The notes under the pieces are model-generated. The model made no database searches and was not told where the DNA came from. It worked only from the letters and a program-made list of their open reading frames with translations. The translations under genes were made by a program, and so were the position numbers. This document shows, piece after piece, positions 1 through 28,145 of a stretch of 34,191 nt of DNA (positions are counted from its first letter, which is position 1; each line of letters opens with the position of its first letter). This DNA is from an uncultured Bacteroidota bacterium (GTDB taxonomy: Bacteria > Bacteroidota > Bacteroidia > AKYH767-A > JABDAW01). The stretch spans positions 1 through 34,191 of the forward strand of contig CAIMUP010000042.1 of assembly GCA_903844645.1 (NCBI GenBank), in the 5' to 3' direction.

Positions 1-17
1 ATTTCCAGGAGATTTCC

Positions 18-317
18 AATACTGCTATTCTATTCAAAATCCATTTTCGCTTTAATATCATTAATGAAGTACAGTGGAAACTACAGTATGGAATGGACTT
101 CATTAATGAAGTACAAACAAAACTAAAGTATTCCTTGTACTTCATTATTGATGTTTTATCAAAACCACAGTTTTTATCGTACTTCATTAATGAAGTTCAA
201 ACAAAACTAAAGTTTTTATCATGCTTCATTAATGAAGTCCATTCCATACTGTAGTTTCCACTGTACTTCATTAATGATATTAAAGCGAAAATGGATTTTG
301 AATAGAATAGCAGTATT
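18..317. repeat. Array A: 42-bp period dyad array inside a 94-bp perfect inverted repeat
   Basis: The palindrome CTTCATTAATGAAG, or a close variant, begins at 56, 98, 140, 182, 224 and 266, exactly 42 bp apart. Midway between copies, on a 21-bp grid (centres about 83.5, 125.5, 167.5, 209.5), sits a second dyad of the form AAAACTnnAGTTTT. Bases 18-111 are the perfect reverse complement of 224-317 (94 bp, no mismatch), so the whole array can fold on itself around a 112-base loop that contains further copies. It lies about 235 bp downstream of the patatin-like gene, which reads leftward. The rest of the gap (318-551) is AT-rich and holds nothing I recognise. No transposase or cas gene is visible. 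Confidence 0.95.
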
Positions 318-4894: not shown

Positions 4895-5035
4895 CCATAA
4901 AAACATCAAGTATTGCCGCCAATCATCGATAAAAACATCAAAGGCAACGATAAAAACATCAAAACCGACGATAAAAACATCAAAGGGCTTGAACAAAACA
5001 TCACTGCCAGCGGCAAAAACATCACTGGCGGGAGG
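4895..5035. repeat. Array B: 21-bp period repeat after the M4 protease stop codon
   Basis: The core AAACATCA occurs at 4901, 4933, 4954, 4975, 4996 and 5017. The last five are exactly 21 bp apart; the first is offset by 32 bp. A core of about 10 bases (AAAAACATCA) is conserved while the ~11-base linker varies. Only a weak dyad (GAT six bases before ATC) is visible in three units. The array begins directly after the stop of the minus-strand M4 protease gene, so it would be the start of that gene's 3' untranslated region. The rest of the gap (4614-4894) has mixed composition with possible hairpins but no gene I can support. Confidence 0.85.
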
Positions 5036-8000
5036 TTATTCTTTGACGATCTTCTTCACCATTTTCCCGTTCGCGCCCTCCATTTCCAAGATATAGATTC
5101 CTTGCGGCAGGCTGCCGATATTCATATTGAATACGTTTTGCCCGACCGTAGGATGGATGGTATTCGATGCCATAATTTGCCCAACCATATCCATTATTTT
5201 AATGGAGAACGGGGAGGTAACGGCGGAAAGTTGGAGTTCGATGGTCAAAAAATCATTCGCCGGGTTCGGAAAGATGCTGAATGAAACGCTGTTGTCGAAC
5301 GTGCTGATACCGACATTGCTGATCACAATCGTCTCGGTAACCGAATCGGTACAACTACCATTCGACACTCTTAATGTAACGTGGTAAGTGCCATACGCGA
5401 GGTAGGTATGCACCGGATTTTGCATCGTGGAGGTATCCCCATCACCAAAACTCCAGTTCCATGTCGTAGAATTGGTAGAAGTATTCGTAAAAGTATAAGT
5501 TAAGGAGCTTTGAACAGAAGTAAAAGACGGGGTAACGCCATTATTCACGACCACCACGATTGGTACACGAGCACTGGTGCATGGCGCAGGGCTAATCTCC
5601 CAATCATAATAGAAATAGAAACGGGTTTGGTCAGCATCGTTGCCAGTAATAGAAATAGAACCGGAAGGATCGGTATAAGGATAAACCGCCCCCTGGGAAT
5701 TACGGTATAAATGGACGTTGCCTTCGCAAGAAATAGTATAACCAGGGGCAGTAATCAATGGGAAGTTGAGGGTAATACGGCTCTCCCCGATAGGAAGATT
5801 AGCGATGACGGAATCTATTAAGTTGCCAGCAGGATCATATAGCCTCACAATGCGATCGCCAGTACCCTGTGCATATACTTTCACAGAAACTAAGGTACAT
5901 GGAGCATTCACATCGAAGAAAATATAGTGGTCATAATTATTAAAACTACCCCCACCCAATGCACTGTCGTGCGGAGTGTCAAACACATTCGCATTCGCGA
6001 TGGTCGTAGCCACATAATAGGTAGTGCTGCCATTCAGGGGAGGTGTTTGGAAGGTGGCTCCGGTATCTATCACACTGCCTCCCGTCGGTTGATGATACCA
6101 ATACTGAACTAAAGGACCATTAGCGGTAAGTAAAAGGGAGTCTCCGCAGTTGATGGTATCAGGAGAAGTAACCGTAGGCTGTGCAGGAGGATTAATGGTG
6201 ATGTAATCCACACGAATCAAAGAATCAGTGCCGCAGGTACCTCCATCCACGAATAACTCCACCGTGAATGTGCCGGCAGTATTGTAGATATGAGTAGGAT
6301 GAGCAGCAGTGCTGGTATCGCCATCACCAAAATGCCAAAGGAATGTACCGGCATTAGAACTGGTATTGGTAAACATCACCGCATCAGGTAGGCTACAGGA
6401 ACTCTGCTGAATGGTCGCGAAGTTACTGGTAACGACAGGGGAGAACTTAGCCCCCACCCCGACAGCATACCAAGCATTGGTAACTGTAATAACCTCTGGT
6501 GTACATGCCCCGTAAAGGTCTGTCGCAGCTTGGATGGAATAGGTTCTGGCATCGGCGTATTGTGCATTAGGGAATAGGTACACGGTTTGCATCCTAAACC
6601 AGATTGCCTCTGCCTTCGCGATGCCCAGCCCCACCACGTTGAAGGTATCGGTGTTGTCATTCACGCCACTGTCTCTCATCGTAACGATGTAATAACAATG
6701 GCTAAGGATGGTACTATTTTGATGAACCTCTTGGGTAGCGAAATCCCAGTATTGCCCAAGGTATGTATCGGGGTTTTGCAAGGACTTCGGGTTCTTCATA
6801 TCGCGGAAAGGGGCACCGCCAATCTCATCTGCAATTAACCAATCTATCGTGGTAGATTGTTTGCCAAAGTGCCGAATAGAATTCCCCATACAATCGCTGA
6901 ATCCTTCATTCATGGCTCCTGGTTCGTTGCCACCGGCAAGTGCTGCGGTGTATTGCGTCAAGCCATGTGTAATCTCATGTCCGGTAATATCCAAGGCTGT
7001 CAAAGGATTATATGTTCCACTGCCATCGCCATAAGTCATCCTTGTTCCATCCCAAAAAGCATTCAGGTAATTCGTGCTGTAATGAACATAAGACAATAGT
7101 TTCAAGCCAAGGTTATCAATACTGTTCCTGTTGAAGGTGGAATCATAAAAATCATACGTCTTCTCGGCACCCCAATGTGCATCTGTGGCATATTGGTCTT
7201 GTGCGGCATTCACATTATTCCAGGTGGTGGTGGCATTGGTGAAATCGGTGGTGGTGTAATTCATGGTGGTCGTCATGTTATACGTTTCGATACCGTTGCC
7301 GCGACCCGTTTCTCTCAAACGATAATGCCCTGCGGTACTATCGGTCATCATTGTTTTTGCTCCGCTATAAACCGTCATGGCGGTAGCTTGAATATTGACA
7401 TCGAGGATTCTATTCTGCTCTAAAACGATGGCTCCGTTCGCTGCATCCACAAAGATATAACTCCGTTTCAAAGGCGATGAGGCATAAACATCGAAGCGGT
7501 ATGCCAGTCGGTAGTTATCGGCTTGGAAGTTGCCATTCAGCGGAGCACAAAACAATTCGCCATGTGGGTAATAGGTCGCATTCGGATTGCCGGTTTCTAA
7601 TTTTAATTGAGCCTCGTCTTGCTGCGATTCCCAACGGTAGCTTTCAGCATTCATGGATCTCAAAGCAACTTGCAAAGCCGATGATTCATTGAGCGAAGCG
7701 ACAGCAGCAACATTGCTTACTGCTCCGAAAAACATCCCATTCATTGAAACAACCTTGTTGTTTTTGGTGTGGACGATCAGCATGGTTCCTTCCATCGGGA
7801 AGCCGTTGAGCGTTTCTTGATAGCGGTAATGTTGCATCCCGATTTTATCTGTTTCGGTGCTTAATAACTTCATGCCGAGAGCGGAATTTATCTTAAAAGT
7901 TACATGAAACCAATTATCGAAAGTCTCGATAGCGACCTCTGATCCTTTACGGAATTGGATGAATGTGGGAACGGTCGAAACATCGCTGGTTCGGATTAGT

Positions 8001-8134
8001 TCGGCTCCGCGAATCAGTTGCTGTGCGTCATTCCCCGTGATGGTTTTTACAGGATTCAGGATGGTAAATCCTGAACAGCAGATGGTAAATCCTGAACAGC
8101 AAACGGCGAGCAGGAGGGTGTACATTTTTTTCAT
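5036..8134 (-). CDS. Secreted M4 (thermolysin-like) metalloprotease with PKD repeats and T9SS sorting domain
   Basis: 1032 aa. In order: signal peptide (~1-28); an FTP/PepSY-type propeptide (~30-230); an M4 catalytic domain with zinc motif HEITH (His386, Glu387, His390) and the third ligand Glu410 in NEGFSD; a PKD domain with FGDGDTS near 600; an Ig-like segment with [10 protein letters not shown]; a lectin-like beta segment; a second PKD domain with FGDGDTS near 900; and a T9SS type A sorting domain from FSIFPNPAN to the lysine-rich end. Predicted to be exported by Sec, moved over the outer membrane by T9SS, then surface-bound or released, degrading extracellular protein. The signal peptide contains a perfect tandem 7-residue duplication (CCSGFTI twice) encoded by a 21-bp repeat. 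Array B follows the stop codon directly. Family assignment is firm. Confidence 0.95.
8060..8101 (-). repeat. Perfect 21-bp tandem duplication inside the M4 protease signal peptide
   Basis: Bases 8060-8080 are repeated exactly at 8081-8101. Because 21 is a multiple of three, the frame is kept and the signal peptide gains seven residues. The first copy together with its flank forms a dyad: TTCAGGAT and ATCCTGAA around five bases. This is the same unit length as the intergenic arrays of this window. Confidence 0.95.
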
Positions 8135-8804: not shown

Positions 8805-9110
8805 ATGCCCCTCGATAGGCTGTGATGACCAACCCAACTTTATGGCATGGTAGCAAATAGGTTATGATGACCAACCCAACTTTATAGCATGGTAGTAAAT
8901 AAGCTGTGATGACCAACCCAACTTTATGGCATGGTAGTAAATAGGCTATGATGACCAACCCAACTTTATGGCATGGTAGTAAATAGGCTATGATGACCAA
9001 CCCAACTTTATAGCACGGGGGAGAATACGCTATGATGACCAACCCAACTTTATGGTATGGCATCAAATAGGCTATGATGACCAACCCAACTTTATAGCAT
9101 GCCATCCCCA
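8805..9110. repeat. Array C: seven copies of a 42-bp repeat
   Basis: The core GACCAACCCAACTTTAT begins at 8827, 8869, 8911, 8953, 8995, 9037 and 9079, exactly 42 bp apart with no indels. The second half of each unit (GGTAGTAAATAGGCTATGAT-like) is more variable. 42 is twice the 21-bp period of the neighbouring arrays. In some units GCTAT and ATAGC flank the core as a weak dyad. An open frame runs through it only because 42 is a multiple of three. The remainder of the gap (8695-8804 and 9111-9367) is AT-rich with no gene or clear terminator. Confidence 0.95.
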
Positions 9111-16380: not shown

Positions 16381-16590
16381 AAAAGAAAATATTCACCGTC
16401 AAAAAGAAAATATTTCGCCAAATATTTTCTTTTTTGGTCCACTCAAAACTTTTGAGTACACACTCAAAACTTTTGAGTACACACCCAAAACTTTTGAGTA
16501 CACACTCAAAACTTTTGAGTACACACCCAAAACTTTTGAGTACACGCCCAAAACTTTTGAGTGATTACTCAAACTCGTGTTCCGTACCAA
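16381..16590. repeat. Array D: seven 21-bp palindromic units plus a 15-bp hairpin
   Basis: ACTCAAAACTTTTGAGT, a near-perfect palindrome around a central base, starts at 16441, 16462, 16483, 16504, 16525, 16546 and 16567 (exact 21-bp steps; some copies are ACCC or GCCC at the left end). Just before it AAAGAAAATATT occurs twice, 21 bp apart (16382, 16403). The second copy makes a perfect 15-bp stem with 16420-16434 around a CGCC loop; its centre (16417.5) is 31.5 bp, three helical turns, from the first palindrome centre. The array lies in a divergent gap. The rest of the gap (16152-16380) holds only a short hairpin, CCCGTT-ct-AACGGG, at 16174-16187. Confidence 0.95.
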
Positions 16591-18558: not shown

Positions 18559-18697
18559 TTTCTGTCATGGGACAGGAAAGTTCTGTCGTGGGACAGGAAA
18601 GTTCTGTCATGGGACAGGAAAGTTCTGTCATGGGACGGGAAAGTTCTGTCGTGGGGCGGGAAAGTTCTGTCGTGGGACAGGAAAGTTCTGTCCTTGA
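18559..18697. repeat. Array E: seven 21-bp units with a CTGTC/GACAG dyad
   Basis: TCTGTC starts at 18561, 18582, 18603, 18624, 18645, 18666 and 18687, exact 21-bp steps. Each unit reads CTGTC-4 bases-GACAG-GAAAGTT, so a 5-bp dyad is centred on the same grid; two units have point changes (GACGG, GGCGG) in the right arm, and the last keeps only the left arm. It lies between lipA and the BNR protein gene. The 363-bp gap also has ATAAATCTGT twice, 18 bp apart (18733, 18751), which is off the grid. No promoter box is obvious before 18779. Confidence 0.95.
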
Positions 18698-21578: not shown

Positions 21579-21824
21579 GTGAGGGAAAACCGTTTTCCTT
21601 CACATACGAACACTTTTCCTTTACATACGACGAGGTTTCCTTTACATACGAGCAACTTTCTTTTGTATACGAGTAGCTTTCCTTTGCATACGATGAGGTT
21701 TCCTTTGCATACGACGATGTTTCCTTTATATACAAGCAACTTTCTTTTGGATACGGGGAGCTTTCCTTTATATACAAACAGCTTTCCTTTGGATACAACT
21801 TAGATTCCTTTAGAGAAAATTGTT
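21579..21824. repeat. Array F: eleven 21-bp units with exact spacing
   Basis: TTTCC (or a one-base variant) begins at 21594, 21615, 21636, 21657, 21678, 21699, 21720, 21741, 21762, 21783 and 21804, with no indel over 210 bp. Consensus TTTCCTTTnnATACGA with two variable bases in the middle and a 4-5 base variable linker. No clear dyad inside units, but the left end carries GGAAAAC-C-GTTTTCC (21584-21598). It follows the BNR gene terminator and precedes the fbaB promoter. Both strands are open across it only because 21 is a multiple of three. Confidence 0.95.
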
Positions 21825-23889: not shown

Positions 23890-24121
23890 CGACTTTAAAT
23901 AAAACCTGCCCGTACTTAAATAAGGTCATAGACTTATTTAAATACGGTCAGGTATTATTTAAATACGGTCAGCCCCAATTAAAATAAAGTCAGCCCGTAT
24001 TTAAATAAGGTTATAGACTTATTTAAATACGGTCAGGACAAACTTAAATACGGTCAGCCCCAATTAAAATAAAGTCAGCCCGAACTTAAATACGGTCAGC
24101 CCGAATTAGAATAAGTTCAGG
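23890..24121. repeat. Array G: about eleven 21-bp units built on TTTAAA and GGTCAG
   Basis: The stretch TTAAATACGGTCAG and variants recurs with steps 21, 22, 21, 21, 21, 22, 21, 21, 21, 21 from 23895. Dyads TATTTAAATA or ATTnnAAT are centred on nearly every unit (for example 23939.5, 23960.5, 23981.5, 24002.5, 24045.5, 24066.5, 24087.5, 24108.5). A larger block of about four units is duplicated 85 bp away: the segment with TAAGGTCATAGAC near 23922 recurs as TAAGGTTATAGAC near 24007, which accounts for both 22-bp steps. TTAAATAAG and CTTATTTAA also pair around an 8-base loop. Gap between accD and the 24253 gene; the promoter follows. Confidence 0.93.
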
Positions 24122-27889: not shown

Positions 27890-28145
27890 CTTTTGGGAGC
27901 CAAAATATTGGCTTATATTTCCAAAATATTGATCAATATTTCCAAAGTTTTGCCTTATATTTCCAAAATATTAATCAAAATTTTCCAATCATTAATCAAT
28001 ATTTTGGAAGTTTTGATCAACATTTTGGAATCATTGACCAATAAAATCTTTTCATTGGTCAATGATTCCATTTCATTGATCTATAAAGTTGTTTTATTGC
28101 CTAATAAAATGATTTTATTAACCACTATTTTACCTTTTGCAGGCA
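27890..28145. repeat. Array H: twelve 21-bp units between uppS and bamA
   Basis: A pentamer of the GATCA/GCCTT/GACCA type falls at 27910, 27931, 27952, 27973, 27994, 28015, 28036, 28057, 28078, 28099, 28120 and 28141, exactly 21 bp apart. Around it dyads recur though their bases differ: AAATATTGATCAATATTT (centre 27932.5), TTGATCAA (28016.5), ATTGnnCAAT (28037.5), TCATTGnnCAATGA (28058.5), TTTTATTnnnnAATAAAA (28100.5). The left units carry TTTCCAAAATATT and the right ones the reverse AATATTTTGGAA, so the array is itself roughly inverted. The flanks of the gap (27762-27889, 28146-28261) are AT-rich without a gene or clear promoter box. Confidence 0.9.

What the first reader, a model, noticed from the sequence alone, without database searches (positions are those of the whole stretch)
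18..317. Two alternating palindromes, phased every 21 bp, inside a 94-bp perfect inverted repeat
CTTCATTAATGAAG centres and AAAACTnnAGTTTT centres alternate exactly 21 bp apart from 62.5 to 272.5. The linker bases differ, yet the centres do not move. In addition 18-111 and 224-317 are perfect reverse complements, so one half was recently copied from the other (gene conversion, inversion or hairpin templating), because even the variable linkers match. Perfect arms over 94 bp need a homogenising process.
Basis: seen in the sequence. Interest (0 to 1): 0.75.

Follow-up and report, generated by a model that had tools for sequence, protein, structure and literature searches.

The report
Genus-wide 21-base-pair intergenic repeat lattices
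The mirrored repeat at the start of this window is one of an estimated 800 short repeat arrays between genes in this uncultured bacterium; each has its own sequence but nearly all share a 21- or 42-base-pair rhythm (two or four turns of the DNA helix) that is kept far more strictly than ordinary mutation would allow, in a pattern for which I found no description.

Summary
In detail: eleven palindrome centres exactly 21 bp apart (62.5 to 272.5), and 18-111 is the perfect reverse complement of 224-317 (longest inverted repeat in 20 shuffles: 20 bp). It is not a lone curiosity. In 816 kb sampled from this 3.84-Mb genome there are 170 arrays of at least 80 bp with period 21/42, about 800 genome-wide, each with its own unit. 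Two same-genus genomes have them; a same-family genome has none in 105 kb. They lie between genes, outside promoters. Successive 42-bp blocks stay in register in 706 of 738 comparisons at 17% mismatch, while 46% of equal segments of other dispersed intergenic DNA change length. Similarity decays with distance in 42-bp steps, so arrays grow and shrink by in-phase duplication; contig C87 carries a version shorter by exactly 168 bp. A sibling on contig C14, also 226 bp, has perfect outer arms of different sequence, so arm homogenisation recurs, most likely by template switching. Long mirrored arms are rare (3 of about 170 arrays). RNA hairpin, coding, curvature, REP transposition and artefact readings are tested and disfavoured. 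What holds the register (a protein lattice, or the duplication mechanism itself) is inferred, not shown.

The parts
55..280 (.). 226-bp core array: six CTTCATTAATGAAG-type and five AAAACTnnAGTTTT-type palindromes alternating at 21 bp
18..111 (+). left arm of the 94-bp perfect inverted repeat
224..317 (-). right arm of the 94-bp perfect inverted repeat
112..223 (.). imperfect inner part of the inverted repeat (hinge region)
1..54 (.). decayed outer 42-bp-period units of an older array, continuing into contig C87
281..551 (.). decayed outer 42-bp-period units on the right side (lag-42 identity 0.53)
   Evidence: the repeat finder D2
8815..9101 (.). another intergenic array of the same class, period 42
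16440..16562 (.). another array, period 21, palindromic unit CACTCAAAACTTTTGAGTACA, between divergent genes
18560..18692 (.). another array, period 21, between lipA and the next gene; this gap is short and array-free in G002
21594..21798 (.). another array, period 21/42/63/84
23897..24114 (.). another array, period 21/42/85
27900..28124 (.). another array, period 21/42, palindromic units around AATATTTCCAAAATATT
4927..4986 (.). short array of the class, 2.9 copies of 21 bp

Best explanation
The element is one of several hundred intergenic two-turn lattices of one uncultured Bacteroidota genus: tandem arrays of a locus-specific 21-bp half-unit, usually as an alternating 42-bp double unit and often with a palindrome in each half-unit. 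Shown: fixed period across unrelated sequences, intergenic position outside promoters, register kept despite substitutions, decay of similarity with distance in 42-bp steps, an in-phase shorter version in one contig, and independent perfecting of mirrored outer arms in two sibling elements. Inferred: (1) units are duplicated or lost by slippage or unequal recombination in whole 42-bp steps; (2) where a palindromic array forms a long hairpin, template switching (quasipalindrome correction) or arm-to-arm conversion copies one arm onto the other, giving the 94-bp perfect arms; (3) register is held by selection because 21 bp is two helical turns, so every half-unit presents the same DNA face, most plausibly to a repeating nucleoid-type protein assembly or another DNA-level boundary structure between transcription units. 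Step 3 is the least certain.
For: Period: mean self-identity is 0.73 at lag 21 and 0.83 at lag 42, against 0.23-0.31 at neighbouring lags. Class size: 170 arrays in 816 kb, 4.0% of bases. Position: 122 of 131 placeable arrays are intergenic, in tandem, convergent and divergent gaps; the TAnnTTTG promoter motif lies between array and start codon in 75 of 144 cases on the sense strand against 12 antisense, and is rare inside arrays. Register: 706 of 738 successive 42-bp blocks exactly in phase at 17% mismatch, 70/70 in G001 and 66/66 in G002; control intergenic homologues change net length in 46% of 42-base segments at 14% mismatch, and gaps per mismatch are 0.041 against 0.113. Stepwise growth: identity 0.82, 0.77, 0.73, 0.69, 0.65 at lags 42 to 210, with odd multiples of 21 lower. 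In-phase contraction of exactly 168 bp at the end of contig C87. Mirrored arms. DNA-level symmetry: palindromic consensus units 25% against 6% for random 21-mers; double changes inside palindromes 33 complementary against 23 not.
Against: No binding protein was found; only archaeal-type histones (absent) and a Y1 transposase (one match) were looked for. Units of different arrays share no sequence, so one sequence-specific protein cannot read them all. Arrays are not helically phased with the promoter and show no 10-11 bp AA/TT phasing. Most arrays are not strongly palindromic. Detection by TRF may favour arrays without indels, which would exaggerate the register effect, and comparisons within an array are not independent.
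Confidence: 0.5

Rival explanations
1. Purely mutational arrays: a lineage-specific replication or recombination process duplicates DNA in steps of 21/42 bp (for example with both breakpoints on one face of a helical nucleoprotein complex), and the arrays have no function; register persists because arrays turn over quickly.
For: Locus-specific units, steady decay of identity with distance, an in-phase contraction seen in one contig, an array present at one gene pair here and absent in G002, and placement in DNA where little is constrained.
Against: Decayed outer units (lag-42 identity 0.46-0.53) still show a peak exactly at 42, and 17% mismatch with almost no net length change is hard to get without constraint unless copying is unusually error-prone without indels. 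GC of arrays (0.427) is above that of other intergenic DNA (0.353).
Confidence: 0.34
2. Repeated operators: a dimeric transcription factor binds each palindrome, with 21-bp spacing for same-face cooperativity.
For: Palindromes with two half-sites and an unpaired centre at two-turn spacing.
Against: About 800 arrays with unrelated units; also present in 21 of 61 convergent gaps, where no promoter is driven; no phasing with promoters.
Confidence: 0.05
3. RNA hairpins (terminators, mRNA stabilisers or small RNAs) transcribed from the arrays.
For: The element folds strongly; some arrays lie downstream of genes.
Against: No G-U excess over A-C at non-Watson-Crick positions in gene-oriented arrays (122 against 114); no Rfam match in the window; no terminator-like site in 1-600; arrays lie upstream of promoters.
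Confidence: 0.05
4. REP/BIME or MITE-type mobile elements spread by a transposase.
For: Alternating palindromes resemble BIMEs; a few arrays are homologous copies (C42/C14; the L005-L182-L197 group), and dispersed REP-like hairpins lie near some arrays.
Against: Most arrays share no sequence with each other; only one Y1 transposase match in the genome; the shared flanks are a promoter-like sequence on one side and a REP-like hairpin on the other, and many copies of the hairpin families lie far from arrays.
Confidence: 0.04
5. Assembly or library foldback artefact at a contig end.
For: The element lies 18 bp from a contig end.
Against: Mid-contig sibling of the same length and layout; the left arm is also in contig C87; perfection is in the outer arms and not next to the hinge; 17 arrays of the class in G001 and 22 in G002, from separate assemblies.
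Confidence: 0.02

Closest known systems
Quasipalindrome-associated template-switch mutation (PMC7202029, PMC8794818, PMC8604942)
   Same: Perfects one stretch of an imperfect inverted repeat by copying one arm from the other, which fits perfect 94- and 59-bp outer arms with imperfect inner parts.
   Different: Explains the mirrored arms only, not the 21/42-bp register or the hundreds of arrays without long arms.
Tandem repeats of Borg elements (PMC9879509)
   Same: Pervasive tandem repeats, locus-specific units, fast turnover, many intergenic.
   Different: Borg units are perfect with varied lengths, about half in ORFs, A-enriched and head-to-tail; here period is fixed at 21/42, units diverge, arrays are intergenic and often palindromic.
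REP/BIME elements (PMC3733652)
   Same: Intergenic clusters of alternating palindromes.
   Different: REPs fall into shared sequence families dispersed with RAYT transposases; here every array has its own unit, a fixed two-turn spacing, and no RAYT expansion.
TAACTGA heptamer arrays of Beggiatoaceae, Cyanobacteria and some Bacteroidetes (PMC4679880)
   Same: Abundant intergenic tandem repeats in particular lineages.
   Different: One fixed heptamer, in the main species mostly within several nucleotides upstream of start codons; here no shared sequence and a position outside the promoter.
Alpha-satellite layers of primate centromeres (from own knowledge)
   Same: Younger homogenised units in the middle, older decayed layers at the edges, as around window 55-280.
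   Different: Very long arrays at one locus per chromosome with centromeric chromatin; here about 200 bp between operons.

Membership tests
REP/BIME elements | Shared palindrome sequence across copies | tested here: not met
   Units of the listed arrays are unrelated apart from a few small homologous groups
REP/BIME elements | Associated RAYT (Y1) transposase | tested here: inconclusive
   One PF01797 match in the whole genome at C138, its neighbourhood not studied
Quasipalindrome template-switch product | Imperfect inverted repeat with an internal tract made perfect | tested here: met
   94 of 94 bp in outer arms, inner 112 bp imperfect; sibling 59 bp with different sequence
Quasipalindrome template-switch product | Ancestral imperfect state seen in a close relative at the same locus | not testable with these tools
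   No genome closer than about 90% LipA identity is held; the element motif is absent from 60 relatives
Borg-type tandem repeats | Perfect head-to-tail units of varied length, about half within ORFs | tested here: not met
   Fixed 21/42 period, 17% mismatch between 42-bp blocks, 122 of 131 intergenic
TAACTGA heptamer arrays | Heptamer TAACTGA repeated just upstream of start codons | tested here: not met
   No TAACTGA-repeat unit among the array units listed; median array distance from start codon about 170 bp
Phased A-tract curved DNA | AA/TT recurring every 10-11 bp | tested here: not met
   AA/TT autocorrelation 0.81-0.82 of expectation at lags 10-11
Structured RNA element | G-U pairs tolerated in stems on the transcribed strand | tested here: not met
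   122 G-U against 114 A-C in gene-oriented arrays; no Rfam match in the window
Coding heptapeptide repeats | Third-position bias of substitutions | tested here: not met
   mod-3 max/mean 1.30 against 1.36 in shuffles; open frames slightly above expectation, 2.84 against 2.21

The most novel reading that the evidence does not exclude
This genus carries a chromosome-wide, sequence-independent, helix-phased DNA lattice: hundreds of inter-operon arrays kept at exactly two (or four) helical turns per unit, read by a repeating protein assembly that recognises periodic self-similarity or shape and not a sequence, in effect a bacterial chromatin or boundary code.
Probability: 0.2. Interest if true: 0.9.

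Novelty: new variant of a known kind. Interest (0 to 1): 0.66.

Why it matters
Bacterial intergenic tandem repeats usually have either one sequence or varied periods. Here an estimated 800 loci of one genome share the period but not the sequence, and hold it against indels. If selection holds the register, there is an unknown reader of two-turn periodicity between operons; if mutation does, there is an unknown duplication process with a 42-bp step. Either can be tested directly. The arrays also break short-read assemblies and produce spurious short ORFs with seven-residue repeats.

Tried and rejected
Assembly foldback (sibling on C14, separate assemblies of G001 and G002). Coding heptads (no third-position signal). 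RNA hairpins (no G-U excess; no Rfam hit). A-tract curvature. Phasing with the promoter (no Rayleigh signal at 10.5 or 21). An early idea that the arrays are the core of a mobile element with two conserved ends was dropped: one end proved to be a promoter-like sequence of the next gene and the other a REP-like hairpin, many copies of which lie far from arrays. Archaeal-type histones: none in five genomes. My first gap count by whole-array self-alignment was invalid because the aligner dropped the 42-bp shift (second line); it was redone block-wise. Literature searches for fixed 21-bp intergenic arrays found nothing; only open-access papers were searchable.

Full report
The observation. The window is the whole of contig C42 of a 3.84-Mb, 143-contig genome. 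Positions 56-279 hold eleven palindrome centres exactly 21 bp apart, and 18-111 is the perfect reverse complement of 224-317. Three of six first-type palindromes are perfect and three match 12/14; of the second type one of five is perfect. The longest inverted repeat in 20 shuffled windows is 20 bp.

It is one of a class. Tandem Repeats Finder lists several more arrays of period 21 or 42 in this window alone. In 816 kb of this genome (21% of it), 170 arrays of at least 80 bp have period 21, 42, 63 or 84, out of 180 tandem arrays of that length: 2.1 per 10 kb, 4.0% of bases, about 800 by extrapolation. Mean self-identity is 0.73 at lag 21 and 0.83 at lag 42, against 0.23-0.31 at neighbouring lags. 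The consensus units differ from array to array. The median length of arrays inside stretches was 211 bp in the first 323 kb; an upper limit near read length may be an assembly effect, since 39 arrays sit at stretch or contig edges.

Distribution. Two same-genus genomes have the class at 1.4 and 1.2 per 10 kb; a same-family genome has none in 105 kb; short stretches of ten order-level relatives gave one array; 80 named Bacteroidota loci (1.28 Mb) gave two. A LipA tree groups the window with G002 and G001 at full support. The organism is an uncultured Bacteroidota lineage; no name is available from the tools.

Position. Of 131 placeable arrays 122 are intergenic by a simple codon-model gene call, in tandem, convergent and divergent gaps. 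The Bacteroidota promoter motif TAnnTTTG lies between array and start codon in 75 of 144 cases on the sense strand against 12 on the antisense strand, and is rare inside arrays. Arrays thus sit outside promoters and 5' leaders. They are not helically phased with the promoter motif.

Register. Comparing each 42-bp block with the next, 706 of 738 are exactly in register although 17% of positions differ; G001 gives 70 of 70 and G002 66 of 66. In other dispersed intergenic homologues of the same genome, 46% of 42-base segments have a net length change at 14% mismatch. Gap openings per mismatch are 0.041 in arrays and 0.113 in that control. TRF may under-detect arrays with indels and the comparisons are not independent, so the size of the effect is uncertain, but it is large.

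Growth. Identity falls steadily with distance, 0.82, 0.77, 0.73, 0.69, 0.65 at 42, 84, 126, 168 and 210 bp, and odd multiples of 21 stay lower: arrays change by local steps of 42. The edges fade into decayed units. Around the window element an older 42-bp array of another unit continues on both sides. The end of contig C87, which matches window 1-109, then jumps to the window's closing motif at 266-284, a contraction of exactly 168 bp (8 x 21) at a shared CTTCATTAATGA; this looks like a shorter version in the sampled population, though reads were not available. At lipA the gap to the next gene is 364 bp with an array here and 102 bp without one in G002; in G001 an array with another unit follows lipA, though the same next gene was not found there.

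Mirroring. The C14 sibling (41892-42117) has the same 226-bp length and the same end motifs. Its outer arms are perfect over 59 bp but differ from those of C42; 15 of 150 aligned arm positions are shared within and different between elements. In both elements the perfect tract ends at the second palindrome. This is what template switching at a quasipalindrome produces (PMC7202029, PMC8794818, PMC8604942); arm-to-arm conversion is an alternative. Only three of about 170 arrays have perfect arms over 50 bp, so mirroring is an occasional outcome, not the rule.

Symmetry and readout. 25% of consensus units are strongly palindromic against 6% of random 21-mers, with an unpaired centre and arms out to about 8 bp. 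Non-Watson-Crick positions show no G-U excess on the gene strand (122 against 114 A-C), so symmetry is a DNA-level and not an RNA-level property. Double changes within palindromes are complementary in 33 of 56 cases, where about a third is expected, though several come from one array. AA/TT does not recur at 10-11 bp and substitutions show no codon pattern.

Interpretation. Shown: the class, its fixed period, its register, its placement and the recurrent arm homogenisation. Inferred: in-phase unit gain and loss, template switching, and selection on two-turn register through a DNA-level structure or protein lattice. The main rival is a duplication process with an intrinsic 21/42-bp step and no function. 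Open-access literature searches found no description of such a class; subscription papers were not searchable.

Noticed in passing
L202 (G002 C3:20001-40000) and L120 against G000: Gene order between two same-genus genomes (LipA 90% identical) is scrambled at the scale of one to a few genes: one 20-kb stretch of G002 maps to C25, C107, C1, C98, C69, C96 and C105 of G000. Whether breakpoints coincide with arrays was not tested.
   Followed up: partly
L175 6234-6259, L180 4725-4856, L009 8624-8797, L190 9722-9801 and others: Two dispersed REP-like hairpin families (CCTGAAAGG..AGAAAAA..CCTTTCAGG and CATCGTTTT..GCAATCACAAAACGATG) shared by G000 and G002, often close to gene ends.
   Followed up: partly
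L119 3578-3951, L118 5026-5267: Long 7-bp tandem arrays (GAATAGT x53, TATAGTA x29) in G002 and G001; 7 is a third of 21.
   Followed up: no
window 8060-8101: Exact duplication of 21 bp at the 5' end of the gene 5036-8134 (repeated CCSGFTI in its N-terminus), a possible newborn two-copy repeat.
   Followed up: no
L005 19429-19526: 98 bp that is 97% identical to G002:C90:3685-3782, far above typical gene identity between the two species; not a tRNA.
   Followed up: no
G000 C87:3503-3618: Contig C87 ends in a version of the window's array that is shorter by exactly 168 bp, suggesting length variants in the sampled population.
   Followed up: yes
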